DNA from: Herminiimonas sp.
GTDB taxonomy: Bacteria > Pseudomonadota > Gammaproteobacteria > Burkholderiales > Burkholderiaceae
Direction of reading: 5' to 3'
Length of the DNA: 17,628 bases
Assembly (NCBI GenBank): GCA_014377155.1
Contig: JACMQD010000019.1
Coordinates: forward strand, 1-17,628
Shown here: piece by piece, positions 740 to 15,766 of the stretch
How positions within the stretch are numbered: position 1 is the first letter of the stretch
How the letters are laid out: every line of letters begins with the position of its first letter
Position numbers and translations under genes: made by a program
Notes under the pieces: model-generated
Database searches by the model: none
Told to the model about the DNA's origin: nothing
What the model saw: only the letters and a program-made list of their open reading frames with translations

Positions 740-1489
740 ATGAAAATACTTTTGATTAACCCAAACACGACGCAGCTGGTAACCGATGCGGTACTTGCTG
801 CCGCGCGCGCCATTGCCCGACCCGATACCGAGTTGCAGGCAGTGACCGGCACGTTTGGTGCCGAAGTGATCGGCTCGCGCAGCGAAAACGCGCTGGCACA
901 ACATAGCGTGTTGGCGCTGGCGGCTCGCCATGCACCTGGTTGTGACGCGGTGGTGCTGGCGGTATCGCTCGATACCGCGCTTTGGGCTACCCGCGAGCTT
1001 TTGGACATACCTGTATTGGGCATGACCGAAGCCGGTTTACTCGTTGCAGCCACAGTGGCACCCCGGATTGGCGTGCTCACTTATGGCAAGCGCATGGCGC
1101 CGTTTTATCGCGAGCTGGTCGAGTCCTATGGCCTGCGTGATCGGCTGGCGGCAGTGGTTGCCATGGATTTGCTGCCGCAACAATCGTTTGGTAACCCGGC
1201 CGCGGTGGAAGCGGCGATTCTGGATGCTGTGCAGCGCCTGATCGAACAAGACGGCGCCGAAGCGGTAGTGCTGGCCGGCGCTGCCATGGCATGCATGGCG
1301 GCGCGCCTGCAACCACTGGTGACCGTGCCGTTGCTCGATGGCGTCGGCTGCGCCGTATCGCTGGCCGAGTCGATGATTCGATTGCAACTGCCGAAAGCAC
1401 GCTCCGGCAGCGTTTCGTCGACCGGAGGCCGGACCATATCTGGGGTTGATCCGGCCATGATTGACTTGTTCGCCGGAGTGCGTACATGA
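740..1489 (+). CDS. Hydantoin/allantoin racemase-like protein lacking both catalytic cysteines
   Basis: This 249-residue protein belongs to the Asp/Glu/hydantoin racemase superfamily. It has the usual length and fold markers: MKILLINPNTT at the N-terminus, DIPVLGMTEAG at 89-99 and PLLDGVG near 198-204. Family members interconvert hydantoin or allantoin enantiomers with two cysteines, in IACFGDPGL-like and IVLGCAGM-like motifs near residues 76 and 181. Here the same positions read VVLAVSLDTAL (V75) and VVLAGAAM (G180), so both acid/base cysteines are replaced. The remaining cysteines (68, 185, 204) are out of register. It may therefore be a non-racemising relative, a binding protein or an inactive copy. 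It starts the operon under the sigma-54 promoter at 594 and overlaps the amidase by 4 bases (ATGA). The ribosome binding site before ATG 740 is weak. Confidence 0.82.
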   Translation: MKILLINPNTTQLVTDAVLAAARAIARPDTELQAVTGTFGAEVIGSRSENALAQHSVLALAARHAPGCDAVVLAVSLDTALWATRELLDIPVLGMTEAGLLVAATVAPRIGVLTYGKRMAPFYRELVESYGLRDRLAAVVAMDLLPQQSFGNPAAVEAAILDAVQRLIEQDGAEAVVLAGAAMACMAARLQPLVTVPLLDGVGCAVSLAESMIRLQLPKARSGSVSSTGGRTISGVDPAMIDLFAGVRT

Positions 1490-2895
1490 GCGCTGCCATG
1501 CATGAGTGGAGTGCGCGCGAGCTGGCATCGAAGGTGACGTCCCGGTCACTCAATGCCGTCGACGTGGCGCACTATTTCATCAATCGGGTGGAACACTACA
1601 ATCCGTCACTGAACGCGATCGTTCAGTTCGACCCGGCGCTGGTACTGTCGGAAGCGGCAAAGGTCGAGCAACGTCTGGACCATGGCGAGGTGCTGCCGCT
1701 GGCCGGGGTACCTATTACCATCAAGGACAACATTTGGGTCGAAGGACGGCGCCTGTCGCAAGGTTCGGCTTTATTTTCCGACTTTATTGCCCCGTGCGAC
1801 GCCTGGGCCGTGTCCCGGCTGCGTCAATGCGGGGCGGTCGTTCTGGGCATCACCAACTGTTCCGAATTCGCGTGCAAGGGCGTAACGTCGAACCGGTTAT
1901 ACGGCACGACGCGCCATCCACTGGACTTGCGATTGACACCGGGCGGGTCGTCCGGCGGCGCGGCGACGGCGCTGGCGGCCGGCATGGGCTTGCTGGCGCT
2001 CGGCACCGATGCCGGCGGTTCGGTGCGGCGGCCGGCCGCACATTGTGGCCTGGTGGGCCTGAAGCCGAGTGCCGGCATCATCCCGCATCCATGGGGTTTT
2101 GGCGAGCCGAACTACGGTCTGTCGGTGATCGGGTTGCTCGCACGTGACGCTGCCGATTGCGCCTTGCTGCTCGACCAGTTGCTGGCTTACGACGGCGGCG
2201 ATGCGGCCAGCCCAGCGGTGCCGGTTGCCCTGTATGCGTCGGCGCTGGTAGCGGCGCTGCCCCGGCGAGATCTGCGCATCGCCTGGAGCCCGCAGCTCGG
2301 TTGCGGCTATGCCATCGATACCGATGTACTACAGACGCTGCAGACGCGAATTGACGCGTTGCGCGACAGCGGCTGGGCAGTCGCCGACGCCGATCCGGCA
2401 TGGCCCATGGGGATTGGCACATTTCCGGTGATGGCCCTGCAGGAAGCCGGACTGCACGCTCTCTATGGCAGCCGGCTAGCTGCCGAACGTGACGCCATCG
2501 ATCCTGACCTGGTTGCGCAGATCGAAGCCGGAGCCGCGCGCACACCGGATGAGCTGGCCCGTGTGTTGCGTTTGCGTGATCGCATTTCCGGTGCGCTGGC
2601 GCATTTCTTTGACGACTATGATGTGCTGTTGTGTCCGACCACCCCAGTCACCGCCTGGCCGGCGGATCAGCTCGGCCCAACCGACATCGGCGGCCGCCCA
2701 GCGGGGCCACGTGGCCATGCCGCGTTTACGCCGCTGTTCAACTATTGTGGCGTCCCTGCGTGTTCGGTACCGGCCGGGCTGGTACGCGGCCTTCCAGTTG
2801 GTTTGCAGATCGTCGCGCGCCGCTTCGACGATGCGCTCGTCTTGCAGATCGCAGCTTTGCTGGAAAGCCAACTGAGGTTAAATACTGGTATTTGA
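1486..2895 (+). CDS. Amidase-signature family hydrolase
   Basis: This 469-residue enzyme of the amidase-signature family hydrolyses a carboxamide to the acid and ammonia in the cytoplasm. The Ser-cisSer-Lys triad is complete: K80 in ITIKDN, S155 in PGGSSGGAA and S179 in GTDAGGSVRRPA, with the spacing of 75 and 24 residues known from fatty acid amide hydrolase. The C-terminal CPTTP and VPAGLVRGLPVGLQIV motifs also fit, and the length is typical. ATG 1486 is chosen because it overlaps the preceding stop codon (ATGA), indicating translational coupling. Relatives include GatA, allophanate, oxamate and 6-aminohexanoate-dimer hydrolases. The subfamily cannot be told from sequence alone, but the setting suggests release of ammonia from a ureide or amide intermediate. 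It is not likely to be GatA, as no gatB or gatC is nearby. Confidence 0.9.
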   Translation: MSAAMHEWSARELASKVTSRSLNAVDVAHYFINRVEHYNPSLNAIVQFDPALVLSEAAKVEQRLDHGEVLPLAGVPITIKDNIWVEGRRLSQGSALFSDFIAPCDAWAVSRLRQCGAVVLGITNCSEFACKGVTSNRLYGTTRHPLDLRLTPGGSSGGAATALAAGMGLLALGTDAGGSVRRPAAHCGLVGLKPSAGIIPHPWGFGEPNYGLSVIGLLARDAADCALLLDQLLAYDGGDAASPAVPVALYASALVAALPRRDLRIAWSPQLGCGYAIDTDVLQTLQTRIDALRDSGWAVADADPAWPMGIGTFPVMALQEAGLHALYGSRLAAERDAIDPDLVAQIEAGAARTPDELARVLRLRDRISGALAHFFDDYDVLLCPTTPVTAWPADQLGPTDIGGRPAGPRGHAAFTPLFNYCGVPACSVPAGLVRGLPVGLQIVARRFDDALVLQIAALLESQLRLNTGI

Positions 2896-3139: not shown

Positions 3140-4678
3140 TCATATGCTAGAAGAGGGTCCGTAGAACGGGGATCGCTGCTCGCCGTCAAGATAGCCTTCG
3201 TAAAACTTTTTCACATGCGGGAATACCGCCTGCGACAGCTTCTGCCGTTGGACCTCATCTTCACTACGCGGGCGCGACAAGCGTTCTGCAATTTCCTTCA
3301 GTACCTGGTCGCGGTCGACATGTATAAATTTGCCTTTCTCGTAAATCACTTCGCCAGCGACCACCGTGGCGTCGACGGCGCCCATCTTAGCGCGCTGCAT
3401 GACGGCGTCGAGAATCGGCACGTCGCTGTCCTGGTATGGGTACAGCGCCTTGTGGGTGTCGATCATAACGAAGTCAGCTTGCCGTCCGATTTCGAGGCGG
3501 CCGATTTCACTGCCAAACGGCGTCGTCATCGCGCCATGTTCGGTCGCCATGCGCAGCACCTGTGGGCAGGTCGGCACACTGTCGTCCATGCCCGGCGTGC
3601 GATGGGCGCGCAGCACCATGCGCATTTCCTGGAGCATGTCGCGGTCATCGTTGATGCCGGCTTCATCGAGCCCGATACCGACCGTCATGCCTTTGGCCTC
3701 GAATGCGTTAAGAGGTGCGACGCCGCTGCGGAGACGGAAATTCGAGCTACAGTTGTGGCACAGGCAGGTGCCGGTATCGGCCGCGATCTCGATGTCTTCC
3801 TGAGTCAGCCAGACGCCGTGACCGAGTGTCAGTCGCGGTCCAAGCAGGCCGAGTTTGTACAAGTGCTTAACGGCGGTCGTGCCGGTTCGGCGCCGTGCGT
3901 ATTCTTTCTGATAAGCGGTCTCGAGTAAGTGCATGTGCATTGGCACCTGGTCGCGATCGGAGCGTTGCTGCAATGCCGACAGCGCATGGTCCGAGCACCA
4001 GTGCAGGTTGGCCGGCGCGAGCTGGATTCGGGTACGGGCTTGGCCGGCGTTTTCCGTAACGAGGGCGTCATACAGCGCGAGGTTATCGTCGAAGGGAATC
4101 GCCTGTTTTTTAAGATAGGCGGCCAGGGTCGGGGCGAGATCGGTCGGAACGCGCGCGACGAATTCCTCGTCGGCTTCATACACAAGCCGGTTTTGCTCGC
4201 GTACGGCGTAGCAGTACGATGCGCGCATGCCGATATCCCGATACGCCTTTAGGACTTGCAGCGAAGTTGCCTGAATATTGGCCAGTGGCCCGGGCATCCA
4301 GCCATGGATATGCTGCACGGTCGTAATACCGGAGGCGATCATCTCAAAAGCCGAGTACAGGGTATCGAGATACCGATCAAGATCGCGGCTGGCCATCCGA
4401 CTGGCAAACCACAGTTCCAGCGGATGATCGGGCGAACCCATTTGCAGCGGTGTCATGCCGACATGGTGATGACTGTTGACGAAACCTGGCAGCATCATGT
4501 GTACATCCGAACCATAAACATCGGCGTCTGGATGGCGTGCGGCGATGTCGTCGAAGCGGCCGATGTCCATGATCTTGCCATCGCGCTGCAATAGTGCGCC
4601 ATTCTCGATCACGTCGGCTTCATACCGGTTGCGCACACCCGTGACAATCCACTTGGCCTTGTAAATAGTTTCTTTCAT
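3140..4678 (-). CDS. AtzB/TrzA-type metal-dependent amidohydrolase (COG0402)
   Basis: This 512-residue amidohydrolase-superfamily enzyme is of the cytosine/guanine/triazine deaminase type (SsnA/AtzB/TrzA group), cytoplasmic and usually dependent on one Zn or Fe ion. Metal ligands are visible in order: H70 and H72 in PGFVNSHHHVGM, H250 in MHMHLLET with the proton-shuttle E253, H287 in LGHGVWL, and D338 in GIGLDEAGINDD. Length and C-terminal beta-sandwich remnants (RLEIGRQADFVMID) fit the family. Known reactions are hydrolytic loss of an amino or alkylamino group from a purine, pyrimidine or s-triazine ring, for example by 8-oxoguanine or hydroxyatrazine deaminases. The exact substrate is unknown. 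ATG 4678 is preceded by AAGGGA at good spacing. It lies 53 bases after the permease gene as the last gene of the ABC operon, so its substrate is probably what the transporter brings in. Confidence 0.85.
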   Translation of the reverse strand: MKETIYKAKWIVTGVRNRYEADVIENGALLQRDGKIMDIGRFDDIAARHPDADVYGSDVHMMLPGFVNSHHHVGMTPLQMGSPDHPLELWFASRMASRDLDRYLDTLYSAFEMIASGITTVQHIHGWMPGPLANIQATSLQVLKAYRDIGMRASYCYAVREQNRLVYEADEEFVARVPTDLAPTLAAYLKKQAIPFDDNLALYDALVTENAGQARTRIQLAPANLHWCSDHALSALQQRSDRDQVPMHMHLLETAYQKEYARRRTGTTAVKHLYKLGLLGPRLTLGHGVWLTQEDIEIAADTGTCLCHNCSSNFRLRSGVAPLNAFEAKGMTVGIGLDEAGINDDRDMLQEMRMVLRAHRTPGMDDSVPTCPQVLRMATEHGAMTTPFGSEIGRLEIGRQADFVMIDTHKALYPYQDSDVPILDAVMQRAKMGAVDATVVAGEVIYEKGKFIHVDRDQVLKEIAERLSRPRSEDEVQRQKLSQAVFPHVKKFYEGYLDGEQRSPFYGPSSSI

Positions 4679-4731
4679 GCTTATCCCTTGGTGAAAGATT
4701 TAGTAAGATCCGGCGCTCGCCGTCTGTCGTG

Positions 4732-5667
4732 CTAGGTTGCCCTGCGATCATTGCCCGGACCCACCCACCAGAGCAGCCGCTGTTGCATTCGTCGCAGCGC
4801 ATAGTCGAGCAAAAAGCCGAGAAGTCCGATCAACGTCATACTAAAAAACACAAGCGACGAATTGAATGTATTGCGCGCCATCATGACGATTTGACCGAGT
4901 CCACTTCCGACGCCCACGGCTTCGGCGATCAGCACGGCCATCCACGCTGCGAACAGGTTCAGACGCAAGGTGACAAATAGACCCGGCAGGATGGCCGGCA
5001 AGATGACATTCTGGAAAATTTGGCGCTTGCTGGCGCCGAGAATACGCGCTACCTGGACGTAGCTGATGGGGACGTTATCGATCTGTGAGAGCGTGGCAAG
5101 TACAATCACGAAATAAACCGAAATGAACACCATGAATACCGCGGGAACGTTTCCGATACCAAACAAGAAGATCGCCACCGGCAACCACGCAACAGGCGAT
5201 ATCGGTGCCAGCAAGGTCAACGTCGGCAGGGTCAGCTTGCCGAACAACAGGTTGTAGCGATTGAAAATGCCGGTTGCCACGGCAAGCACAAAGCCGATTC
5301 CCAAGCCCAGGACGACCCGTAACGTGGTCCAGGCGATGACCTGCAGCACGCCTAATATGCTGGCACCTTCGCCATCGACGCCAACCCGGCTACCCGCATC
5401 GAAAAACTTGAACTGTTCTGGCAGGTTCGACAGGAACATGTGTGGTGGCGGCATGAGTAGAGGATCGGCCCAGCCGGCCAGCCAGCACAGCTCCCACACC
5501 CCGACGAAGATGCCGACCGAGGCAATCCACCACGCAGCCGTTGCGAGCATGCGGCGCGTCTTGCGCCTGGCCGGGCTCGAGACCGCGCGCGCGGGGATTT
5601 TTTTTATGGGCGGCGTGGCTGTTGCGGCGACCGGGTGCTGTGGCAATTCATTCGACATGACTTTCAT
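4732..5667 (-). CDS. ABC transporter permease, SsuC/TauC type
   Basis: This 311-residue inner-membrane permease of the nitrate/sulfonate/taurine/pyrimidine-type importers has about six hydrophobic segments, the first around residues 45-66 after a basic, proline-rich cytoplasmic tail. The cytoplasmic EAA loop that contacts the ATPase is recognisable as VARILGASKRQIFQNVILPA. ATG 5667 is chosen because it overlaps the ATPase stop by 4 bases; a second in-frame ATG at 5658 is possible. It should form the channel for the substrate delivered by the binding protein encoded at 6562-7638. Specificity is not readable from the permease. Confidence 0.9.
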   Translation of the reverse strand: MKVMSNELPQHPVAATATPPIKKIPARAVSSPARRKTRRMLATAAWWIASVGIFVGVWELCWLAGWADPLLMPPPHMFLSNLPEQFKFFDAGSRVGVDGEGASILGVLQVIAWTTLRVVLGLGIGFVLAVATGIFNRYNLLFGKLTLPTLTLLAPISPVAWLPVAIFLFGIGNVPAVFMVFISVYFVIVLATLSQIDNVPISYVQVARILGASKRQIFQNVILPAILPGLFVTLRLNLFAAWMAVLIAEAVGVGSGLGQIVMMARNTFNSSLVFFSMTLIGLLGFLLDYALRRMQQRLLWWVGPGNDRRAT

Positions 5668-6461
5668 GAGGTTGCTCCCTGTTGATCTGCAAACGCCCGG
5701 TTGACCTCGTCAGCTAGCAGATCCGATAGCGCCTCTTGAAGGCGACGATATTCAGGGTCGCGTGGCGCACGTGGCCGCGCCAGCGTGACGGGAATGATAC
5801 TTTTGACACGCCCCGGACGCGCTGTGAATACGACAATGCGGTCCGCCAGCGCAATCGCTTCTTCGATCGAATGGGTAACCAGGATGACCGAGGCACCACT
5901 GTCGCGCCAGATTTCGATCAGGAAGTCCTGCATCTTTGCGCGGGTCTGCACATCGAGCGCGGCGAAGGGCTCATCCATCATTAACACCATCGGCTGCATC
6001 GCCAATGCGCGTGCCACGGCAACGCGCTGGCGCATACCGCCCGAGAGTTCGTCAGGCCGCTTGTCGAGCATGTCGCCAAGCCCGACCTTGCGCAGCAGCT
6101 TGGATGCCACGTCGCGCCGGTTTTCCGGCGACATGCCGCGCAAACCGAGACCGAACGTCACATTCTCCGCCAGCGTAAGCCAGGGAAAAAGCGACGCATC
6201 TTGAAAGATCATGCCGCGCGCCGAGCTTGGTCCTGTCACCGCAAGGGCATCGCATTCAATGCTGCCCTGACTGGCGGCTTCGAGCCCGGCAATCATGTAG
6301 AGCAACGTACTTTTGCCGCACCCGGACGGTCCCAGCAGGACAACAAACTCGCCGCGCGCGACGTCGAACGACAGGTCGTCGAGTGCCAGCAATGGCGAGC
6401 CACTATCCGGATTCCACGTTTTTGAAATACCCTTGCAGGAAACAGCGGTTACGCTAGCCAT
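5664..6461 (-). CDS. ABC transporter ATP-binding protein, SsuB/TauB type
   Basis: This 265-residue ATPase energises the importer. It has Walker A GPSGCGKST (44-52), Q-loop Q87, signature LSGGMRQR (139-146), Walker B VLMMDEP (159-165) and switch H197. The Q-loop context MIFQDASLFPWLT is typical of the nitrate/taurine/sulfonate group. ATG 6461 has only a modest GAGTGAG-like ribosome binding site. The gene ends overlapping the permease start (ATGA), so the two are translationally coupled. The gap of 100 bases to the binding-protein gene upstream holds a strong stem-loop (6523-6557). Confidence 0.93.
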   Translation of the reverse strand: MASVTAVSCKGISKTWNPDSGSPLLALDDLSFDVARGEFVVLLGPSGCGKSTLLYMIAGLEAASQGSIECDALAVTGPSSARGMIFQDASLFPWLTLAENVTFGLGLRGMSPENRRDVASKLLRKVGLGDMLDKRPDELSGGMRQRVAVARALAMQPMVLMMDEPFAALDVQTRAKMQDFLIEIWRDSGASVILVTHSIEEAIALADRIVVFTARPGRVKSIIPVTLARPRAPRDPEYRRLQEALSDLLADEVNRAFADQQGATS

Positions 6462-6522
6462 CAGATACTCACTCTAAAGTTATTTAGAACTGCAAAAAGC
6501 CATGCCTGGCCCTGGTTGAAGG

Positions 6523-6557
6523 TGCGCCTGCACGGGACCGGGTCCGTTGCAGGCGCA
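6523..6557 (-). repeat. Strong intercistronic stem-loop between binding-protein and ATPase genes
   Basis: TGCGCCTGCA (6523-6532) is perfectly complementary to TGCAGGCGCA (6548-6557). The 15-base loop can pair further (GGAC with GTCC). No T-run follows on the minus strand, so it does not look like a full terminator. Such stems after a binding-protein gene commonly protect the upstream mRNA and raise the binding protein above the membrane subunits; that role is inferred here. Confidence 0.6.
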
Positions 6558-6561
6558 TTCG

Positions 6562-7638
6562 TCAAGCCGATTTCACTTTAAGGGAGGCATACAAGCTCTT
6601 GTTATCGGCAATGACTTTTTCGAGCAGAGACCAGTCGATTGCCTTGGCGTCGGGCAATTTCTTGATGTAGCCGAGTTCCTTCATTGACTGGCCGCGCTCG
6701 AGAATGAATTTGGTCTGGTTGCGCTGGTCCACGACCACAGGCTGCCGCTGTTTCGCTACGCGTGCTGCTTCCATGGTGGTTTTGTAATAGGTGCCGACCG
6801 TATCCTTGAGCGCTGCCTCCGGATCGGACTCTGCCTGGCTCTGCGCGACCATGAGCGCCTTGATGATGGCCCTTACCGCGTCCGGTTTTTTTTCGATCAG
6901 CGGGATACGCGCGGCAAGGACACAGTCGGAATAGCCTTTGCCATACACGTCGGTGCCGTCCGACAGGATGGTCGATCCTTTGCGTGTCAGGCATTGCGTC
7001 GCATACGGCTCGATGTGACAGATGGCATCGACGGCGCCGGCCAGAAATGCCTGGGCCAGCTCCGGGGAGGTATTGAAATAGCGCACCTGGACGTCCTTGA
7101 AACTCATCCCGGCCTTCTTGAGATAGTCGTAGGGCAGGACTTCGAGCGTATCGGCCTGGAAGGTGCCGAAGGTTTTGCCTTTCAGGTCGGCAGCTGATTT
7201 GATGCCTTCCTTAGCAATGATGACGCAGCCTTCCACGCCGCCGCCAGCGACGATACGCACCGGCGCACCGGCGTCATACAAGGTCATGAAATTGGAATAC
7301 GGGATCATCGTGATATCGACTACGCCGGCACCGAACAAGGTGGCGATATCGGCGTTGGACGGCGTCACGACGAAGTCGAGATTGACGCCGTCAGCTTTGG
7401 CAAGATCACGCTTTTTGGCCAGGAACATGCCCAGGTTGCAAAAGCCGGTGCCATGCGTGGCTTTGAGCGTTTCCGCAGCCCACGCGGCCTTCGGATCAAT
7501 CAGCGCAGCCAACCCTGCGGGCAGTGCCGCCGCGACACCGGCCAAGGAGGTCGTTTTAAGAAACGCCCGCCGCTGTTGCAAATGGACTGCATCGATCGCA
7601 GCGCCGTTTGGTTTGTAGTTCCCATGCCGTTCACACAT
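6562..7638 (-). CDS. ABC substrate-binding protein, NMT1/SsuA-like, Tat-type signal
   Basis: This 358-residue periplasmic binding protein of the NMT1/THI5, SsuA/TauA type captures the substrate for the importer. The start is set at ATG 7638 (MCERHGNYK), preceded by GGGGGTG; the frame stays open further upstream, but that extension is not protein-like and covers the promoter. A twin-arginine signal is visible: QRRAFLKTT at 22-30, a weakly hydrophobic stretch rich in Ala/Gly/Leu, and a likely cleavage after AWA (52-54). The mature part carries GTGFCNLGMFLAKK and VVDITMIPYSNF, typical of this fold. Tat export would mean folding before export. It is the first gene of the operon under the sigma-54 promoter at 7772-7757. 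The ligand is unknown; a pyrimidine-, ureide- or imide-like ring is the inference. Confidence 0.88.
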   Translation of the reverse strand: MCERHGNYKPNGAAIDAVHLQQRRAFLKTTSLAGVAAALPAGLAALIDPKAAWAAETLKATHGTGFCNLGMFLAKKRDLAKADGVNLDFVVTPSNADIATLFGAGVVDITMIPYSNFMTLYDAGAPVRIVAGGGVEGCVIIAKEGIKSAADLKGKTFGTFQADTLEVLPYDYLKKAGMSFKDVQVRYFNTSPELAQAFLAGAVDAICHIEPYATQCLTRKGSTILSDGTDVYGKGYSDCVLAARIPLIEKKPDAVRAIIKALMVAQSQAESDPEAALKDTVGTYYKTTMEAARVAKQRQPVVVDQRNQTKFILERGQSMKELGYIKKLPDAKAIDWSLLEKVIADNKSLYASLKVKSA

Positions 7639-7756
7639 AACACCCCCAATTAAATTCGAGTAATTTGAAAAGACGGCGATCCGCTTTTCGAGCAGCCATG
7701 CAGCGTTGTCTCGTCGCCAGAGCGCTACGGATTGAACAATGCTACGCAGTGCGTAA

Positions 7757-7858: not shown

Positions 7859-7870
7859 ATTGTCGACAAT
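7859..7870. promoter_or_regulatory. Putative GntR operator, copy 1 (perfect palindrome)
   Basis: ATTGTCGACAAT is a perfect 12-bp palindrome with the GT-N2-AC core typical of GntR-family sites. It is 22 bases centre-to-centre from copy 2, close to two helical turns, so two dimers could bind the same DNA face. It lies upstream of the ABC-operon promoter. Confidence 0.6.
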
Positions 7871-8150: not shown

Positions 8151-9413
8151 ATGCGACTCGACACCTCAATTGCACAGGAAATCATGCGCCGGATCGCGGC
8201 GCTGGCGTGCTATACAGAGCAGGCCGGCATGTTGACTCGGACCTATCTATCGGACGCCCATCAAGGCGCCGCAGTAGAAATTGCCGCGTGGATGAAACAG
8301 GCCGGGATGGTGGTACGGCGCGACGCGGCGGGCAATGTGATCGGCCGTTACGAAGGCCTCGATCCGACGGCGGCGGCGCTGGCCACCGGATCGCATTTCG
8401 ATACGGTGCGCAATGGCGGACATTATGATGGGCCGCTCGGCATTGTCCTGCCGATCAGCTGCATTGCAGCCTGGTCGCAGCAGGGCTGTCGCTTTCCGTT
8501 CGCAATCGAGGTCATGGCGTTCTCCGAAGAAGAAGGCGTGCGATTCAAGGCCACGCTTTTAGGAAGTCGTGCGATTGCAGGTACGTTCGATACTGGCGTA
8601 CTCGACAACGTTGACGACGCAGGTAAGACAATGCGCGGCACCATGCTCGCCGCCGGCTTCGACCCCGCCGATTTGCCGGCTGCTGCCTACCGTGCCGAGC
8701 AGCTTGCCGGTTTTGTCGAAGTCCATATCGAACAAGGACCGGTGCTGCTGGACGAAGGACTGGCCCTGGGGGTGGTGACCGCCATTTCCGGCGCGACGCG
8801 ATTCATGGTTGACATCAAGGGCAGCGCGGGCCATGCCGGAACCGTGCCAATGGCGTTGCGACATGATGCGGCGATGGCGGCGGCAGAGATCGCGCTCTAT
8901 ATTGAAGGCCGCTGCGCCAGTGTGCCAGGGGTAGTCGGCACCGTCGGCCAACTGACCGTTCCGAACGGTGCGGTCAACGTTATTCCGGGCGCGGCGCAGA
9001 TGTCGATCGATATGCGCGCCGGCGACGACGCGTTGCGCACGCAAGCGACCGCGGATGTCATGGCCGAGATCGACCGCATCTGCCTGCGCCGTGGCGTCGA
9101 CGTGACTGTGCGCAAGACCTACGACGCTAGCAGCGTGGCCTGCTCCGGCGCATTGCAACAGCAATGGGCGGAGACCCTCACGCGCTGCGGCCTCGCGGCC
9201 CGCCATTTGGTATCCGGTGCCGGGCACGACACCATGGCGATGGCAACCGTGACCGATGCCGCCATGCTATTCGTGCGTTGCGGTAACGGCGGCATCAGCC
9301 ATCATCCCGACGAATCGATGACGGCGGACGACGCGGCGCTGGCCGCAGCGGCCTTCATGGACTTTGTCGTGCACTTCCGCGCGCCTGCCGCTTTTCGTGC
9401 CGAGGGCAGGTAA
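8151..9413 (+). CDS. Allantoate amidohydrolase / N-carbamoyl amino acid hydrolase-type M20 enzyme
   Basis: This 420-residue di-metal amidohydrolase of the AllC/HyuC (M20) group cleaves a ureido (N-carbamoyl) group to an amine, CO2 and ammonia. Ligands and catalytic residues are in place: H82 in TGSHFDTVRNGG, bridging D93 in GGHYDG, E127 and E128 in SEEEGVRF, H192 in FVEVHIEQGP and H384 in GGISHHPDE. SGAGHDTMAMA (355-365) and H228 in the dimerisation domain also fit. The wording GSHxDTVxNGG and the TRTYLS start resemble allantoate amidohydrolases more than amino-acid carbamoylases, but substrate is not proven. ATG 8151 is preferred over an in-frame TTG at 8136, as it aligns with family N-termini. 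The gene is under its own sigma-54 promoter and ends 23 bases from the convergent gntR gene. Confidence 0.9.
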   Translation: MRLDTSIAQEIMRRIAALACYTEQAGMLTRTYLSDAHQGAAVEIAAWMKQAGMVVRRDAAGNVIGRYEGLDPTAAALATGSHFDTVRNGGHYDGPLGIVLPISCIAAWSQQGCRFPFAIEVMAFSEEEGVRFKATLLGSRAIAGTFDTGVLDNVDDAGKTMRGTMLAAGFDPADLPAAAYRAEQLAGFVEVHIEQGPVLLDEGLALGVVTAISGATRFMVDIKGSAGHAGTVPMALRHDAAMAAAEIALYIEGRCASVPGVVGTVGQLTVPNGAVNVIPGAAQMSIDMRAGDDALRTQATADVMAEIDRICLRRGVDVTVRKTYDASSVACSGALQQQWAETLTRCGLAARHLVSGAGHDTMAMATVTDAAMLFVRCGNGGISHHPDESMTADDAALAAAAFMDFVVHFRAPAAFRAEGR

Positions 9414-9436
9414 TGGGCTGGCCACAGCCGTTGCCG

Positions 9437-10198
9437 CTACGCGAGTTCCTGGTCGAGAATGGCGCGCAGATCGAGCGCGCCCTTCACATTGTCTTCGAGC
9501 CGCAATGCCTGCTCGACGTGGCGCAGATGATCAACCATGCGGGAGCCGGCCCTGCTCGCATCGCGCGCTTCGATGGCATCGATGATCTCGCTGTGATGGT
9601 GCTGCGGACACGAAGGCATGTTCGGGCTGTCATAGAGCGTAATGACCAGACAGGTCTGCGCGGTCAGTTCGCGCATCATCCGAACCAGCATCGCGTTGCC
9701 GGCCAGCTCGGCCAGCAGCACGTGGAATTCGCCGGCAAGTCGGATGATGGCCACGCGGTCGTTGCGGTCGCGCGCCTTGGCCTCCTTTTGGATATGCTGG
9801 CGCAGCTTGCGAATCTGGGCCGGCGATGCAGCCTGGCACAACAGTGTCGACACACCGGGTTCGAGCAGGCGACGAATGAAGAATACCTCGCGCGCCTCGT
9901 CGACGCTGGGGCTGGCGATGAAGGCGCCGCGGTTCGGGATCAGTGTTACCAGCTTCTCATGCGCGAGCCGCGTCAGCACCAGCCGGATTTTGGTGCGGCT
10001 CAGACCGGAAATTTCAACCAAGCGTTCTTCGACCAGTTGCGTCCCCGGCGGCAAGCGATGTTCGAAGATGGCTTGCTGGATTTTTTGATAAAACTGCTCA
10101 CTGCCGAGCACGATCGGCGGCGTTGGGGCGACGACAAGTTTGGACTTTCGGACCGTGGTCTCGACGGGCTTGCGAATGCGTTTCTCGGTGGTAGTCAA
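9437..10198 (-). CDS. GntR-family transcriptional regulator, FadR/FCD subgroup
   Basis: This 253-residue regulator has an N-terminal winged helix-turn-helix (about 32-95, with LPPGTQLVEERLVEISGLSR and LIPNRGAF) and a C-terminal all-helical FCD ligand domain (about 103-233), including EFHVLLAELAGN with H159 and later H202 and H224 as likely metal ligands. The start is set at TTG 10198 (protein LTTTEKR, TTG read as Met), with GAGG five bases upstream. The open frame continues 84 codons further, but that part is not protein-like and runs through the divergent promoter. FCD proteins usually repress catabolic genes and release DNA on binding a small carboxylate or related metabolite. Its probable targets are the palindromes at 7859, 7881, 8069 and 10400. 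The ligand may be a pathway intermediate. Confidence 0.88.
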   Translation of the reverse strand: MTTTEKRIRKPVETTVRKSKLVVAPTPPIVLGSEQFYQKIQQAIFEHRLPPGTQLVEERLVEISGLSRTKIRLVLTRLAHEKLVTLIPNRGAFIASPSVDEAREVFFIRRLLEPGVSTLLCQAASPAQIRKLRQHIQKEAKARDRNDRVAIIRLAGEFHVLLAELAGNAMLVRMMRELTAQTCLVITLYDSPNMPSCPQHHHSEIIDAIEARDASRAGSRMVDHLRHVEQALRLEDNVKGALDLRAILDQELA

Positions 10199-10247
10199 AC
10201 AGGCCTCGCTGTAGGAATCGGATCGAATCGAAATCTGGGTGGCGCAT

Positions 10248-10253
10248 TTTATA
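10248..10253 (-). promoter_or_regulatory. Possible -10 element of gntR
   Basis: TATAAA on the minus strand, about 50 bases before the TTG start, lies within the repeat ATTTT-ATAC-AAAAT (10246-10259). No good -35 was seen at the expected spacing, so the promoter is tentative. The repeat might serve in autoregulation. Confidence 0.3.
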
Positions 10254-10399
10254 CAAAATTGCCATGGATTGTACGCAGGTTTCGTGCCGGGTTCCTCCAC
10301 GCTGGGCCCGCCACCACAGCGCCGCTGCAGCGGTCGCTGCCGAAATGCAACGCATGCCGCAGCGCGTCGCTTAGGAATACGCCTGGCAATAGGATGTCG

Positions 10400-10411
10400 A
10401 TTGTCAACAAT
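10400..10411. promoter_or_regulatory. Putative GntR operator, copy 4
   Basis: ATTGTCAACAAT matches the perfect copy at 7859 in 11 of 12 positions. It lies 69 bases before the ATG of the 10480 gene, in the region shared with gntR, where it could control the large plus-strand operon and possibly gntR itself. Confidence 0.58.
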
Positions 10412-10479
10412 TTCTCCCGCCGGACGGCGCCAGTGAAAAGGCATCGTCATTCATCTCAACTTCAACAATCACATCTTCC

Positions 10480-11208
10480 ATGACAAACCGCCTCCGTTTG
10501 GGAATGCTGACGCCTTCCTCCAATACCACCCTCGAACCGATCACCTCGGCTTTGCTCGCCCAAGTCCCGGAAGTCAGCGCGCATTTCGGTCGCTTCCGTG
10601 TAACCGAAATTGCCCTGTCAGATGCGGCGCTCGCCCAGTTCGACGCCACCGAACTACTGATGGCCGCCGAACTGCTTGGCCATGCCAAACCGGCCGTCAT
10701 CGCCTGGAACGGGACATCGTCGGGTTGGACTGGATTCGATGCCGACGAGAGGCTGTGCGCCAGCATCACCGCGCGTACCGGCATTGCGTCCTGCACCTCG
10801 GTGCTGGCCCTTAATGAAATCTTCGCGCGTACGGGCGTGACCCGCTTTGGATTGGTCACGCCCTATCGTGACGATGTGCAGGACAAGATTATCGCGAACT
10901 ATCAGCGCGCCGGAATCGAATGTGTGGCCGAGCGACATCTGCAGCTTCAGGATAACTTTTCTTTCGCCGACGTGACTGACGACCAGATCCGGACGATGGT
11001 GCGCGAAGTCGCCTTGCAACGTCCGCAAGCGATTGCAATTTTTTGTACCAACTTGCGCGGCGCACCGCTGGTGGCTGAACTGGAAGCGGAAACCGGTATT
11101 CCGATCTACGACACCATCGCCACGGTGGTGTGGAAGTCGCTGAAAATGGCGGGCGCCAATCCGTCGCGCCTGCATGGCTGGGGATCACTTTTTGGAGCAT
11201 TGTCATGA
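10480..11208 (+). CDS. Maleate isomerase / arylmalonate decarboxylase-like protein (Asp/Glu racemase superfamily)
   Basis: This 242-residue cytoplasmic enzyme opens LGMLTPSSNTTLEP, the hallmark of the maleate cis-trans isomerase/arylmalonate decarboxylase branch. Two-cysteine members use a Cys in a CTS motif and a second in CTNL. Here the first motif reads AWNGTSSG, placing G78 where the first Cys would be, while the second, FCTNLRGAP, keeps C189. This Gly/Cys pattern (G74/C188) is known from arylmalonate decarboxylase, so decarboxylation or a one-base reaction is more likely than racemisation or isomerisation. That is inference. It is the first gene of the operon running to about 15766 and overlaps the hydantoinase start by 4 bases (ATGA). 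Its presence with a second superfamily member at 740 is unusual. Confidence 0.82.
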   Translation: MTNRLRLGMLTPSSNTTLEPITSALLAQVPEVSAHFGRFRVTEIALSDAALAQFDATELLMAAELLGHAKPAVIAWNGTSSGWTGFDADERLCASITARTGIASCTSVLALNEIFARTGVTRFGLVTPYRDDVQDKIIANYQRAGIECVAERHLQLQDNFSFADVTDDQIRTMVREVALQRPQAIAIFCTNLRGAPLVAELEAETGIPIYDTIATVVWKSLKMAGANPSRLHGWGSLFGALS

Positions 11209-12686
11209 ATGAACACTATGCATTCGATCTGGTTATCCGGAATGGCAAGATCGCCACGGCGACCGAAATTTTTACCGCCGACATCGGGATCACGGATGGC
11301 AAAATCGTGGCACTTGCGCAATCGCTGGGGCGCGGCACCGAGGAAATCGATGCCGCCGGACGCTGGGTGCTGCCGGGCGGTGTCGATGCGCACTGCCATT
11401 TGGCCCAACCGACGAGTGACGGCTCGGTATTTGCCGACGATTTTTTTACCGGCACACGCTCGGCCGCGTGCGGTGGTACCACCACGGTGATTCCCTTCGC
11501 CGCCCAGCAAAAAGGCCGTAGTCTGGAACAGGCCGTCGCCGATTATCATCTTGAGTCCGATGGCCGGGCGTGCGTCGATTTTGCGTTTCATGTGATCATC
11601 GCCGATCCGACGCCGCACGCGATCGAGACCGAATTGCCGAGCCTGGTCGAACGCGGTTACTCGTCGTTTAAGGTGTACATGACCTATGATGACCTGAAGC
11701 TCGACGACCGCCAGATTCTTGACGTTCTGGCGGCAGCCAGGCAGCACGGCGCGATGACCATGATCCATGCGGAAAACACGGACTGCATTGCATGGCTGAC
11801 CGAACGTCTGCTGTCCCACGGTTTGAGCAGCCCGCGCTATCACGGTTTGTCGCGCCCGCCCGTCGTCGAACGCGAAGCGACGCATCGGGCGATCTCACTA
11901 GCCGAATTCCTCGACATACCGATACTGATCGTCCATGTATCAGGCGCCGAGGCGACCGAACAGATCCGTATCGCCCAAAGCCGCGGCCTGCGTATTTACG
12001 GCGAGACTTGCCCGCAATACTTGTTTCTGACCGCCGACGATATGGGCGGAGAAGGGTTTGAAGGCGCTAAATGTATTTGCAGTCCGCCGCCGCGCGACGC
12101 CGCCAGCCAGCAAGCGATCTGGGACGGGCTCGATAACGGTACCTTTCAGGTTCTGTCATCGGACCATGCGCCGTTTCGCTATGACGATGAGCGCGGTAAA
12201 AAGCGCGATGGCGAACATACCGCCTTCAATCATGTTCCAAATGGCATCCCGGGAATCGAAACCCGTCTGCCGCTGCTATTTTCGGAGGGGGTACTGACTG
12301 GGCGGATCGACATCAACAAATTCGTTGCTCTAACGTCTACCGACCCGGCGAAAATTTATGGTCTCTATCCGCGTAAAGGCACGATTTGCGTGGGCGCCGA
12401 TGCCGATATCGTGATCTGGGATACCGAACACAGCCTGACTATTCGCAATGAACAGCTGCACCATAATGTTGACTACACGCCGTATGAGGGACGGGAGTTG
12501 CACGCCTGGCCGGCCTTGACGCTTTGCCGGGGAGTCGTGGTGTATCGCGACGGCGAATTTACCGGCCAGGCCGGATACGGCAAATTCCTGCCGTGCGAAC
12601 GGCCGACACCGGCGAGGCCGAAGCCGCGCATAGGACGCAGCTTGCCGTGGCTTGATTGGATTAAACAGGAGACCAAGCATGGTTAG
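11205..12686 (+). CDS. Dihydropyrimidinase / D-hydantoinase
   Basis: This 493-residue cyclic amidohydrolase opens five- or six-membered cyclic ureides (hydantoins, dihydrouracil, possibly allantoin) to N-carbamoyl products. The binuclear zinc site is complete: H63 and H65 in GGVDAHCHL, carboxylated K156 in SSFKVYMTY, H188 in MIHAEN, H244 in LIVHVSG and D320 in SSDHAPF. The oxyanion tyrosine is Y161, five residues after the lysine as in characterised hydantoinases. The SFKVYMTY wording favours dihydropyrimidinase/hydantoinase over AllB-type allantoinase. ATG 11205 has GGAG eight bases upstream and overlaps the previous stop (ATGA). The product would be the natural substrate for the M20 enzymes at 8151 and 12679. 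Confidence 0.93.
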   Translation: MNEHYAFDLVIRNGKIATATEIFTADIGITDGKIVALAQSLGRGTEEIDAAGRWVLPGGVDAHCHLAQPTSDGSVFADDFFTGTRSAACGGTTTVIPFAAQQKGRSLEQAVADYHLESDGRACVDFAFHVIIADPTPHAIETELPSLVERGYSSFKVYMTYDDLKLDDRQILDVLAAARQHGAMTMIHAENTDCIAWLTERLLSHGLSSPRYHGLSRPPVVEREATHRAISLAEFLDIPILIVHVSGAEATEQIRIAQSRGLRIYGETCPQYLFLTADDMGGEGFEGAKCICSPPPRDAASQQAIWDGLDNGTFQVLSSDHAPFRYDDERGKKRDGEHTAFNHVPNGIPGIETRLPLLFSEGVLTGRIDINKFVALTSTDPAKIYGLYPRKGTICVGADADIVIWDTEHSLTIRNEQLHHNVDYTPYEGRELHAWPALTLCRGVVVYRDGEFTGQAGYGKFLPCERPTPARPKPRIGRSLPWLDWIKQETKHG

Positions 12687-13911
12687 GCAAATGGTGAAGG
12701 ATCAGGTTGCTGCCTGGATCGATTTACATACTGAGGCACAGACGGCGTTTCTGGTTCACCTGGTACAGCGCCCGTCGGACAATCCGCCGGGCGACTGTGC
12801 GCCGCATGCGGAAATGACTGCCACTCTTCTGGAAGAGATGGGTTTTACAGTCGAGCGGCACGTCGTACCCTCGACCGTGGCACGGCAACACGGCATGCAA
12901 AGCGTCATGAATCTGATCGTGCGCGAACGTTTCGGCACAGGCCCTACCGTAGCGCTGAATGCCCATGGTGACGTCGTGCCGCCAGGCGATGGGTGGAGCG
13001 TCGATCCCTATGCGGCGGTCATTGAGGACAACTGGCTCATTGGCCGCGGTGCGGCGGTATCGAAATCGGATTTCGCGACCTATGCGTTTGCGTTAAGAGC
13101 GCTCAAAGCCGTCGCCGCGCCGCTCAATGGCAGTATTGAACTTCACCTGACCTATGACGAGGAAACCGGTGGCCTGGCCGGGCCACAATGGCTACTGCAA
13201 CAAGGACTGACGTATCCCGACTTCGCTATTTGCGCGGCTTTCTCGCACCATGTCACAACCGCGCACAACGGTTGCTTGCATCTTCAGATCACCCTGCACG
13301 GGATGTCGGCGCACGCCGCCCGCCCTGATACCGGCCATGACGCAATCGAGGCCGGAACCCGCTTGCTCAATGCGCTTTACCACTACCGCGACACGCTTGT
13401 CGAACGTCGCTCCTCGGTTACCGGTATCACCTCGCCCACGATGATAGTCGGCACCATCCATGGCGGCATCAATACCAATGTAGTGCCAGATACGCTGACG
13501 CTGCGCATCGACCGTCGCATCATCCCGGAAGAAGACCCGGCTTCGGTCGAGGCCGAATTGCGTGAAGTCGTACAGCAGGCACTTGCAAACATGATTGGGA
13601 TAACCTACAAGGTCGACACCGTGTTGCTTGCGAAGCCGTTCCGACCAGTCGGTGACGCTGGCCGACTCGCGCAGATCGTCTGTGATCAGGCGTCTATCGC
13701 GCTGGGCGAAACAGTGACGCAGATAGGCGTTCCGCTGTACACGGATGCGCGGCTGTATGCCGAAGTCGGTGTGCCGACTGTCATGTATGGCGCCGGACCA
13801 CGCAGCTTACTGGAAGCTAACGGACACCGTGCCGATGAGCGCCTGCCGTTGGCAATGCTGCCGGTAGCGACCAAGGCGATCGCATGGAGCTTGATCGAAT
13901 TGCTTAGCTGA
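12679..13911 (+). CDS. M20-family metallohydrolase (ArgE/DapE-like) with altered metal site
   Basis: This 410-residue protein of the ArgE/DapE/ACY1 group normally removes an acyl group from an amino acid in the cytoplasm. It carries H96 and D98 in NAHGDVVPPGDGW, the E161-E162 pair in TYDEETGG, a dimerisation segment (HGMSAHAARPDTGHDAIEA) and a late histidine in EANGHRADE. Two features deviate. The motif normally read GRGAxDMKGG is GRGAAVSKSD, so the metal-bridging Asp is V127. The usual GEP motif carrying a further Glu is replaced by AAF. It may belong to a divergent subfamily using D131, or bind a single metal. AGGAGA precedes ATG 12679. The start lies 8 bases inside the hydantoinase gene, indicating coupling. 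It probably processes the ring-opened product. Confidence 0.85.
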   Translation: MVRQMVKDQVAAWIDLHTEAQTAFLVHLVQRPSDNPPGDCAPHAEMTATLLEEMGFTVERHVVPSTVARQHGMQSVMNLIVRERFGTGPTVALNAHGDVVPPGDGWSVDPYAAVIEDNWLIGRGAAVSKSDFATYAFALRALKAVAAPLNGSIELHLTYDEETGGLAGPQWLLQQGLTYPDFAICAAFSHHVTTAHNGCLHLQITLHGMSAHAARPDTGHDAIEAGTRLLNALYHYRDTLVERRSSVTGITSPTMIVGTIHGGINTNVVPDTLTLRIDRRIIPEEDPASVEAELREVVQQALANMIGITYKVDTVLLAKPFRPVGDAGRLAQIVCDQASIALGETVTQIGVPLYTDARLYAEVGVPTVMYGAGPRSLLEANGHRADERLPLAMLPVATKAIAWSLIELLS

Positions 13912-14084: not shown

Positions 14085-14582
14085 ATGCAAGCATTTCCGC
14101 TTTCCAGCACCGCGTTCGCGCCGTTCGGCGAACTCGTGGCAGATGCCACCGCGCATTCGATCTTCCCGGTCAATGACGGCCGGGCGCTGCGCCATGCGCG
14201 ACTTGCGACGCCAAAGTCCATCTCCGCAGCCTACCTGCGGCAAGAAATTTCTTTATACCGCGTGGCCTGCAGTCCATGGCCGGTCGAGGTCGCCTACTTC
14301 GAACGACATGCGCTGAGCAGCCAATTGTTTTATCCGCTCGGCAGTGCCGCTTACCTGGTAGTGGTGTGCGCCAGTGATGCGCTGGGCGCGCCCGATCCCC
14401 TCACGGCAATTGCTTTTACTGGCGGCACCGGGTGTGGCATCAATTATCATCCGGGCACGTGGCATTATCCGCTGGTGACACTGGGACAGCAGAGTGACTT
14501 CCTGATGCTGATGGCAGAAAGCGGCACCGAAGCCGATTGTGAAATCGCTTGGCTGGCGCAACCTTTGCTGGTGCAGTCATAG
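14085..14582 (+). CDS. allA: Ureidoglycolate lyase-like protein (AllA family)
   Basis: This 165-residue protein is close to the usual 160 of AllA, which splits ureidoglycolate into glyoxylate and urea, the last step of allantoin breakdown in many bacteria. Family motifs are visible: FYPLGSAAYLVVV, GCGINYHPGTWHYPL with its two histidines (an NYHxxxWHxPL pattern), and SDFLMLMAESG. The E. coli protein has IDRGG at the last position, so the pocket may differ in detail. ATG 14085 is preceded by AAGGGA at good spacing. The gene follows the M20 gene after a 170-base remnant and its 3' end overlaps the transporter gene. It is the strongest single hint that the pathway passes through a ureido-acid intermediate. 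The substrate could be a ureidoglycolate analogue. Confidence 0.85.
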   Translation: MQAFPLSSTAFAPFGELVADATAHSIFPVNDGRALRHARLATPKSISAAYLRQEISLYRVACSPWPVEVAYFERHALSSQLFYPLGSAAYLVVVCASDALGAPDPLTAIAFTGGTGCGINYHPGTWHYPLVTLGQQSDFLMLMAESGTEADCEIAWLAQPLLVQS

Positions 14583-15766
14583 CCCGCCGCGTCGCATCGG
14601 CAGCGGACGGCTGGCTACTGTTGCTGGTGGTGCTGGTAGGCCTCAACTTACGCCCGTTGTTGACCTCGGTCAGTCCGCTGTTGCCGGATATCCGCGCTGC
14701 CACCGGCATGGGCTTTCGCACGGCATCGTTGCTCACCGTTCTGCCGGTCGTGATGATGGGCGCCGTCGCACTGCTGGGCGCCCGTATCCACGGCGCCATT
14801 GGGGATCGCTACGGTATTGCGGCGGGCCTGGCGACGATTGCGCTGGCCTGCGGCTATCGCTATGTAGCCGTTAGCACGCCCGAGCTTGTCGCCAGCGCGG
14901 TGGTCGCCGGCAGCGGCGTGGCGATCATCCAAGCCCTCATGCCCGGCATGATCAAGCGTTGCTATCCCACTAGCACCACGCTTGTCATGGGTTGGTATGC
15001 GGCCGCACTGATGGGTGGCGGCGGGCTCGGCGCCATGCTCAGCCCATGGGGTGCGCAATGGATGCATGACTGGCATGCCGGCCTTGGCATGTGGGCAGTG
15101 CTGGCTGGGTCGACGCTCGCGTGGTGGATGGTTGCGCGCATCGCCGCTGCACCGGTCGTCATGGCAGCGCCGCCGTCACAAGGCTTCTGCGGCAGCCGAC
15201 GCGCCTGGCTGCTAGCACTTTACTTTGGCTGGCTCAACGGCGCATATACCAGTCTGGTGGCATGGCTGCCGGCGTTTTATGCCGAACGCGGCTGGAGCAT
15301 GCAGCAGAGCGGCGCGCTGCTGGCAACCATGACGGCGCTGCAGGTGGTGGCGGGCTTGCTGCTGCCACTCCTGTCGCGCCGCAGAATCGATCGCCGTCCG
15401 TGGCTGGCGCTGGGCTTGATCGCCCAGTGTGTCGGATTCGCCGGGTTGATCACGGCGCCCTATGCTCTGCCGTTCGCTTGGATCGCCATACTTGGTTTCG
15501 GTTTGGGTGCGACATTTTCGATGGGCTTGATTCTGGCGCTCGATCATTTGCCGGATCCGCGCCGCGCCGGTGAACTGACCGCCTTCGTGCAAGGCATTGG
15601 TTTCATGCTGGCCGCGTTGTCGCCGTTGATAACTGGGTTGATTCGCGACATGACCGGAAGCTTCATCGCCGCCTGGTGGGTGCTGGCGGGGTCGTCGGTG
15701 GCGTTATTGGTGATTACGTTGCGCTTCCATCCGGATAGCTATGTTGCTGCCATCCCCAACGGATAA
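14549..15766 (+). CDS. CynX/NimT-family MFS transporter
   Basis: This major-facilitator protein of about 405 residues has around 12 membrane segments and the CynX/NimT signature LNLRPLLTSVSPLLPDI (about 32-48) after the first helix begins, plus GLGATFSMGLILALDHLPDP and RAGELTAFVQGIGFMLAALSP near the C-terminus. Relatives transport cyanate, nitroimidazoles and other small compounds across the inner membrane. The start is uncertain: the best candidate is TTG 14549, which lies 34 bases inside the allA-like gene and has no clear ribosome binding site. No in-frame ATG fits before the first helix, so translation probably depends on coupling to allA. It could import an alternative substrate or export an end product; the direction cannot be told. 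Confidence 0.85.
   Translation: MAGATFAGAVIARRVASAADGWLLLLVVLVGLNLRPLLTSVSPLLPDIRAATGMGFRTASLLTVLPVVMMGAVALLGARIHGAIGDRYGIAAGLATIALACGYRYVAVSTPELVASAVVAGSGVAIIQALMPGMIKRCYPTSTTLVMGWYAAALMGGGGLGAMLSPWGAQWMHDWHAGLGMWAVLAGSTLAWWMVARIAAAPVVMAAPPSQGFCGSRRAWLLALYFGWLNGAYTSLVAWLPAFYAERGWSMQQSGALLATMTALQVVAGLLLPLLSRRRIDRRPWLALGLIAQCVGFAGLITAPYALPFAWIAILGFGLGATFSMGLILALDHLPDPRRAGELTAFVQGIGFMLAALSPLITGLIRDMTGSFIAAWWVLAGSSVALLVITLRFHPDSYVAAIPNG

What the first reader, a model, noticed from the sequence alone, without database searches (positions are those of the whole stretch)
740..15766. Composite cyclic-ureide module not matching a known pathway
Hydantoinase, AllC-like and AllA-like enzymes fit an allantoin- or hydantoin-type route, but here they are joined with an AtzB-type deaminase, an amidase, a second unusual M20 enzyme, two racemase-superfamily proteins with altered cysteines, a Tat-exported ABC binding protein and a CynX-type carrier. 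A plausible order is uptake, ring deamination (3140 gene), ring opening (11205), de-carbamoylation (8151 and/or 12679), then cleavage by the AllA-like lyase and amidase. The substrate may be an uncommon imide, modified purine or s-triazine-like ring.
Basis: inference. Interest (0 to 1): 0.7.

Follow-up and report, generated by a model that had tools for sequence, protein, structure and literature searches.

The report
Uncharacterised cyclic-ureide breakdown gene island
A cluster of bacterial genes that probably imports and takes apart some small nitrogen-rich ring compound; its core gene pair recurs in many related bacteria, the ring compound is not known, and several of its enzymes have unusual active sites.

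Summary
In detail: 13 intact genes lie at 740-15766, in the families named. The altered residues are real and conserved. The 10480 protein has Gly for the first racemase Cys and keeps the second (33 of 33 aligned rows). The 740 protein lacks both. The second M20 enzyme has Val or Thr for a metal-site Asp (21 of 21 rows).

The set is a mosaic of modules that recur elsewhere. An AMDase-like protein plus D-hydantoinase are adjacent in 35 of 43 copies. The 3140 type sits with this binding protein in 12 of 13 loci. Eight or nine of the 13 part types occur together on Azospirillum and Salipiger plasmids. The motif TTGTNNACAA lies upstream of this GntR type in 9 of 22 regions, against 15 of 1100 random windows. 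Its only two exact copies in the window suggest one regulon for genes 3140-13911.

Most likely an inducible pathway that imports a small cyclic ureide or amidine, deaminates or opens it, and decarbamoylates it. Substrate and step order are unknown. No known pathway tested meets all its features. 'AtzB-type' is too specific; AllA and CynX look like strain-specific additions.

The parts
740..1489 (+). Asp/Glu/hydantoin racemase family protein lacking both catalytic Cys positions
   Evidence: PF01177; best solved relatives 3qvk and 5lfd (both named allantoin racemase); Cys->Val and Cys->Gly
1486..2895 (+). Amidase-signature enzyme; overlaps the racemase gene by 4 nt
   Evidence: PF01425 308 bits; a neighbouring racemase and amidase pair, in the other order, occurs in Salipiger L084
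3140..4678 (-). Amidohydrolase of the AtzA / adenosine-deaminase / 8-oxoguanine-deaminase / SsnA superfamily, own subfamily
   Evidence: HHH, H-L-(L/V)-E, GHGVW and D-E-A-G motifs conserved in the 13 homologs shown
4732..5667 (-). ABC importer permease
   Evidence: PF00528
5664..6461 (-). ABC importer ATPase
   Evidence: PF00005
6562..7773 (-). NMT1/THI5-type substrate-binding protein with twin-arginine signal (start codon uncertain)
   Evidence: PF09084; signal read; SsuA 2x26 best solved relative (45.5 bits), THI5 4h6d weak
7860..7869 (.). Predicted GntR operator TTGTCGACAA, with a 1-mismatch copy at 7882-7891
   Evidence: conserved motif
8151..9413 (+). M20 N-carbamoyl / allantoate amidohydrolase-type enzyme
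   Evidence: NF006775 508.4 against 479; TIGR01879 349.4 against 204
9437..10300 (-). GntR/FCD regulator; start codon uncertain (longest ORF would start at 10450)
   Evidence: PF00392, PF07729; ORF
10401..10410 (.). Predicted GntR operator TTGTCAACAA, about 70 bp before the 10480 gene; inside the regulator's longest ORF if that start is used
   Evidence: ORF
10480..11208 (+). Cofactor-free AMDase / maleate-isomerase-like enzyme with one catalytic Cys (G78, C189)
11205..12686 (+). D-hydantoinase / dihydropyrimidinase, overlapping the gene before and after
   Evidence: TIGR02033 and NF009941 above cut-off; D-hydantoinase 1nfg 422.8 bits
12679..13911 (+). M20 enzyme of a conserved subfamily with altered metal site (GRGAAVSKSD)
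14085..14582 (+). AllA (ureidoglycolate lyase) family protein
   Evidence: PF04115 128 bits; below the cut-offs of the eight NCBIfam models matched
14549..15766 (+). CynX/NimT-type MFS carrier
   Evidence: NF007256 above cut-off

Best explanation
The window carries an inducible catabolic island that imports a small nitrogen-rich cyclic ureide or cyclic amidine and dismantles it. Shown from sequence: an ABC importer operon ending in an AtzB-like amidohydrolase; a carbamoylase-type gene; a GntR-type regulator; an operon of AMDase-like enzyme, D-hydantoinase and altered M20 enzyme; and a conserved palindrome before both operons. Inferred: GntR releases TTGTNNACAA when the substrate or a product is present; the importer brings the substrate in; the amidohydrolase removes a ring amino group or opens one ring; the hydantoinase opens a hydantoin- or dihydropyrimidine-type ring; the M20 carbamoylase removes the carbamoyl group as NH3 and CO2. 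The AMDase-like enzyme acts at carbon 5 of the ring (decarboxylation, or single-base isomerisation) just before or after ring opening. The amidase and AllA may serve later steps. The substrate and the order of steps are not shown.
For: Family scores. AMDase-like and hydantoinase adjacent in 35 of 43 copies in 40 loci; AMDase-like gene in 138 of 398 Burkholderiaceae genomes at E<=1e-70. 3140 type with this binding protein in 12 of 13 loci and with a nitrilase-family enzyme in 10 of 13; that enzyme resembles N-carbamoylputrescine amidase, below its NCBIfam cut-off. GntR, binding protein, permease, ATPase, AtzB-type, AMDase-like, hydantoinase and amidase genes in a row in Azospirillum argentinense Az39; nine of the 13 part types within one stretch in Salipiger. 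Operator motif 9 of 22 against 15 of 1100; two exact copies in the window, 0.14 expected.
Against: No locus examined holds the whole set. In Az39 several parts are distant (GntR 31%, binding protein 25%, permease 32%) and its amidohydrolase is of another subfamily. The 8151 type is not seen with the 3140, 10480 or 11205 types in 79 loci at the thresholds used. Eight of 43 AMDase-like copies have no hydantoinase next to them. The 12679 type also sits by kynurenine genes in six loci, so it is not specific to ureides. The 10401 site lies inside the regulator gene if its most upstream start (10450) is used. No site within one mismatch lies before the 740 pair or between 13911 and AllA. The 3140 amidohydrolase might open a ring rather than deaminate, as SsnA does (PMC12507026, passages).
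Confidence: 0.6

Rival explanations
1. A variant allantoin / ureidoglycolate route: the hydantoinase replaces allantoinase, the 8151 enzyme is allantoate amidohydrolase, the 12679 enzyme takes the next ureide, and AllA releases urea and glyoxylate; the 740 protein is a relic allantoin racemase.
For: 8151 passes NF006775 'allantoate amidohydrolase'. 8151/12679 relatives follow a racemase and PuuE allantoinase and precede urt/urease genes in Aminobacter SR38. AllA family protein 14085.
Against: Hydantoinase is far above the D-hydantoinase cut-off and below the allantoinase one (262.9 against 357.85). The 740 protein lacks both Cys. AllA occurs in 1 of 79 loci, the one fetched by AllA. It does not explain the importer/3140 operon or the AMDase-like enzyme.
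Confidence: 0.2
2. An ordinary hydantoin-utilisation (hyu) cluster: racemase, D-hydantoinase and carbamoylase turning 5-substituted hydantoins into amino acids.
For: TIGR02033 and TIGR01879 are both passed. [quoted passage not shown]
Against: The racemase lacks both Cys. The extra amidohydrolase, AMDase-like and altered M20 enzymes do not appear in the hyu clusters described in the passages seen.
Confidence: 0.15
3. A cyclic-imide (maleimide/succinimide type) route: hydantoinase as imidase, amidase as half-amidase, 10480 protein as maleate isomerase.
Against: The first Cys is Gly in 33 of 33 rows; its need as nucleophile for maleate isomerisation is recalled. Carbamoylase, AllA and the deaminase-type enzyme have no place. 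The half-amidase scheme is recalled, not read here.
Confidence: 0.07
4. The window is an accidental neighbourhood of two or three independent catabolic units.
For: Modules occur apart in other genomes. The left edge holds an IS6-like transposase fragment, and relatives lie on plasmids.
Against: Motif copies before both operons. Mixed sets recur in L039, L084 and L115.
Confidence: 0.2

Closest known systems
Reductive uric acid pathway of anaerobic bacteria (XdhD-YgfK-SsnA-HyuA-YgeW/UacY-YgeY-YgeX)
   Same: Same three part types: Amidohydro_1 enzyme (SsnA), D-hydantoinase (HyuA) and M20 enzyme (YgeY) acting on ureide rings and products (PMC12507026, passages).
   Different: No YgfK/UacX, YgeW or YgeX gene was found among the window genes scanned (UacY was not tested); the 3140 and 12679 proteins fall far below SsnA and YgeY cut-offs; there is an importer, an AMDase-like enzyme and AllA instead.
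Allantoin catabolism (racemase, allantoinase, allantoate amidohydrolase, AllA)
   Same: Racemase-superfamily, cyclic amidohydrolase, M20 and AllA families.
   Different: D-hydantoinase rather than allantoinase by score; Cys-less racemase; extra importer/3140 and AMDase-like modules.
Hydantoin-utilisation (hyu) clusters
   Same: D-hydantoinase with carbamoylase and racemase relatives.
   Different: Cys-less racemase, extra deaminase-type amidohydrolase, single-Cys AMDase-like enzyme, altered M20.
Arylmalonate decarboxylase (AMDase)
   Different: Gly after the second Cys is Thr (T190); the N-terminal loop reads PSSN where AMDase has PPA (aligned by eye); 61 bits against the 225 cut-off.
5-Nitroanthranilate aminohydrolase (M20) and DapE/ArgE enzymes
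   Different: Metal-site Asp replaced by Val/Thr and the Glu of the later EPT motif by Ala in all 21 rows; whether 5k8m shares this was not tested.

Membership tests
Reductive uric acid pathway | SsnA equivalog | tested here: not met
   3140 protein 150.5 (NF005540, cut-off 444) and 134.3 (TIGR03314, 455.5) bits
Reductive uric acid pathway | YgeY equivalog | tested here: not met
   12679 protein 68.3 against 321.5 (TIGR03526) and 94.3 against 321 (NF009555)
Reductive uric acid pathway | YgfK/UacX and YgeX encoded nearby | tested here: not met
   No such gene among the 14 window genes given to family scans; genome outside the window not held
Allantoin catabolism | Allantoinase | tested here: not met
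   TIGR03178 262.9 against 357.85; D-hydantoinase TIGR02033 554.6 against 393.25
Allantoin catabolism | Allantoate amidohydrolase | tested here: inconclusive
   NF006775 508.4 against 479 passed; TIGR03176 AllC 219.7 against 597.75 not passed
Allantoin catabolism | AllA ureidoglycolate lyase | tested here: inconclusive
   PF04115 passed; the eight NCBIfam AllA models matched are below cut-off
Allantoin / hydantoin racemase (also the racemase of hyu clusters) | Two catalytic Cys | tested here: not met
   Val and Gly at the two positions in the 740 protein
hyu hydantoin utilisation | D-hydantoinase and hydantoinase/carbamoylase family amidase | tested here: met
   TIGR02033 and TIGR01879 above cut-off
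Arylmalonate decarboxylase | G74 / T75-S76 / Y126 / C188 | tested here: met
   G78, T79-S80, Y129, C189, each 33 of 33 rows; criteria from PMC4996985 passages; alignment to AMDase
Arylmalonate decarboxylase | G189 and family score | tested here: not met
   T190 in 33 of 33 rows; NF052327 61.2 against 225
Maleate isomerase | Two catalytic Cys | tested here: not met
   First Cys is Gly in 33 of 33 rows (alignment)
Ectoine EutA | TIGR02990 cut-off | tested here: not met
   63.4 against 318
Ergothioneine ErtD/ErtE | NCBIfam cut-offs | tested here: not met
   ErtD 242.7 against 650 (NF058539) and 192.3 against 600 (NF058538); ErtE 346.4 against 520
s-Triazine pathway | AtzD-type ring-opening enzyme in the cluster | tested here: not met
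   None among the window genes scanned; AtzD-family genes only in relatives L047 and L086
Any of the above | Substrate turnover | not testable with these tools
   Needs purified enzymes

The most novel reading that the evidence does not exclude
The AMDase-like / D-hydantoinase pair is the core of an undescribed aerobic route for oxidised pyrimidines or purines. The single-Cys enzyme decarboxylates a 5-carboxylated cyclic ureide (for example a 5-hydroxyhydantoin-5-carboxylate made by ring contraction of an oxidised pyrimidine) without a cofactor. The hydantoinase opens the resulting 5-substituted hydantoin to a ureidoglycolate-type acid, and carbamoylase or AllA finish it. This would give an AMDase-type enzyme a physiological role in about a third of the Burkholderiaceae genomes sampled (138 of 398).
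Probability: 0.1. Interest if true: 0.8.

Novelty: new variant of a known kind. Interest (0 to 1): 0.5.

Why it matters
The AMDase-like gene is common (138 of 398 sampled Burkholderiaceae genomes), and its relatives are named 'maleate isomerase' or 'aspartate/glutamate racemase family protein', with 'dihydropyrimidinase' beside them in several records. Residue evidence argues against two-Cys maleate isomerisation. [quoted passage not shown] A compact operon in a wheat-rhizosphere Azospirillum makes both questions testable. The M20 subfamily with a conserved altered metal site is a second, separate target.

Tried and rejected
Rejected: (1) FAH-family neighbours (L113, L117) as a second ureidoglycolate lyase. 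PMC3793230 (passages) argues that assignment is an error, so it is not used. (2) AtzB as the specific identity of the 3140 protein. (3) Glycation product MG-H1, creatinine and guanidinohydantoin as substrates: chemically possible, but no evidence. (4) s-Triazines: no AtzD-type gene in the window.

Led nowhere: genome-contig scan with one protein gave four loci only. SBP relatives in solved structures are weak and mixed. The ten paper searches showed no title or abstract start describing this cluster; long lists were cut (32: 12 of 74; 74: 12 of 16; 92: 6 of 31; 93: 12 of 36; 118: 20 of 36; 119: 15 of 31), and in the 20 listed none held a maleate isomerase term. The library is open-access only. 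The 12-mer ATTGTCGACAAT was not well conserved in relatives; the looser TTGTNNACAA was. That motif was chosen after seeing the window, so the window row is not independent (8 of 21 without it); rank 1 is not clearly separated from ranks 2-3, and no function is inferred from it.

Rows dropped before counts: one search used the 40 loci L039-L078 only, which I picked by rank and by second copies (AMDase-like >=50%, hydantoinase >=45%). One search used 79 loci over 10 kb with identity and coverage thresholds set by me (28-50%); they were fetched by several anchors and some come from the same contig, so they are not independent. One search used GntR matches >=43% and removed identical upstream regions. 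A1 has 21 rows: the window and 20 of the 22 matches listed (L089 and L104 left out). A2 has 33 rows: the window and 32 of the 55 listed there. A3 (16) and A4 (26) are A1 and A2 without the plasmid-record rows.
Full report
1. Observation. The window was read on both strands. Pfam and NCBIfam scans give the families listed under parts. The hydantoinase passes the D-hydantoinase model (TIGR02033, 554.6 bits against 393.25) and the subfamily model NF009941, and not the allantoinase model. The 8151 enzyme passes an 'allantoate amidohydrolase' model (NF006775) but not AllC. The carrier passes the cyanate-transporter model. The 3140 amidohydrolase and the 12679 M20 enzyme pass none of the 25 best NCBIfam cut-offs shown for each.

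4. Conservation. In 398 Burkholderiaceae genomes (family of Caballeronia arvi), the AMDase-like protein has a match at E<=1e-70 in 138, the 3140 amidohydrolase at E<=1e-100 in 6 and the 12679 enzyme at E<=1e-100 in 96. In 40 twenty-kb loci chosen by the AMDase-like gene, 35 of 43 copies have the hydantoinase directly downstream. In 79 loci over 10 kb, 13 hold the 3140 type: 12 of these also hold this binding protein, 10 a nitrilase-family enzyme, 5 the 12679 type, 3 the AMDase-like and 3 the hydantoinase type. The nitrilase-family enzyme resembles N-carbamoylputrescine amidase, below its cut-off. The 8151 type occurs with the 12679 type in 5 loci and, at these thresholds, with none of the 3140, 10480 or 11205 types. 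AllA occurs in 1 of 79, the locus fetched by AllA itself, and CynX in 0 of 79.

5. Compact relatives. Azospirillum argentinense Az39 carries GntR (31%), binding protein (25%), permease (32%), ATPase (47%), an AtzB-type amidohydrolase of another subfamily, AMDase-like (61%), hydantoinase (66%) and amidase (34%) in a row. Salipiger CCB-MM3 has amidase, TRAP transporter, AMDase-like (52%), hydantoinase (51%), LysR, racemase, amidase (46%), a PuuE-like gene, a second ABC transporter, GntR, then binding protein (64%), permease (60%), ATPase (61%) and the 3140 type (59%). Burkholderia aenigmatica carries the importer/3140 operon with the 12679 type and a two-Cys racemase on a plasmid. Aminobacter SR38 has racemase, PuuE, allantoate amidohydrolase and the 12679 type before urt and urease genes.

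6. Regulation. TTGTNNACAA occurs exactly in 9 of 22 450-bp regions upstream of this GntR type (8 of 21 without the window), against 15 of 1100 random windows of the same loci and 4 of 1100 shuffled upstream regions; with at most one mismatch, 20 of 22 against 97 of 1100 and 157 of 1100. The window has exactly two exact copies, 7860 and 10401 (0.14 expected; 2 of 200 shuffles reach two). The first lies between the importer operon and the carbamoylase. The second lies about 70 bp before the AMDase-like gene, between it and gntR if gntR starts near 10300; with the longest ORF (start 10450) it would lie inside gntR. Genes 3140-13911 are therefore a probable regulon. No site within one mismatch lies before the 740-2895 pair or between 13911 and AllA.

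7. Mechanism. The most economical reading is an inducible import and hydrolysis pathway for a small cyclic ureide or amidine. The uptake, ring-opening and decarbamoylation steps follow from the families. The deamination step and the step of the AMDase-like enzyme are inferred. SsnA, of the same superfamily as the 3140 protein, takes part in ring cleavage in the reductive urate pathway (PMC12507026, passages), so 'ring deamination' is not safe.

8. Comparison and verdict. The reductive urate, allantoin, hyu, maleate isomerase, AMDase, EutA, ergothioneine and s-triazine families were tested feature by feature (Membership tests); each fails at least one tested feature. The island works like a ureide pathway but is not filed under a known one. 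The paper searches named in Tried and rejected listed nothing on it in the held library. Novelty: new variant of a known kind.

Noticed in passing
window 2-175 (-): N-terminus of an IS6-like transposase at the window's left edge; 39% over 46 residues to the IS6 transposase beside the B. aenigmatica plasmid cluster. Pfam gave no hit for the 58 residues.
   Followed up: partly
L098, L102, L103, L104, L105, L109: Relatives of the altered M20 enzyme (58-59%) lie divergently beside kynureninase and tryptophan 2,3-dioxygenase genes. A role in N-formylkynurenine or a related amide is possible; presence of kynB was not tested.
   Followed up: partly
L086 10111-21932: Polaromonas plasmid with the closest AllA found in plasmids (53%) beside a gene that passes the cyanuric acid amidohydrolase model (544.9 against 360), a hydantoinase and a racemase.
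   Followed up: partly
L047 14822-15901: AtzD/TrzD-family ring-opening amidohydrolase below the cyanuric acid hydrolase cut-off (225 against 360), near an AMDase-like/hydantoinase pair and an AtzB-type gene.
   Followed up: partly
L039 3280-16168: One genome (G346) carries two AMDase-like copies (74% each), a hydantoinase, the importer/3140 operon and two GntR genes within 13 kb.
   Followed up: partly
L113 and L117: AMDase-like genes beside FAH-family genes and, in L113, a BhcA-like aminotransferase (425.5 against 650); function of the FAH proteins not clear.
   Followed up: no
window 15767-16658: About 0.9 kb without a convincing gene between the carrier and an AI-2E family transporter that runs off the window end.
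   Followed up: no
L069 8294-10785: Two beta-lactamase-family proteins directly after an AMDase-like gene that has no hydantoinase next to it.
   Followed up: no
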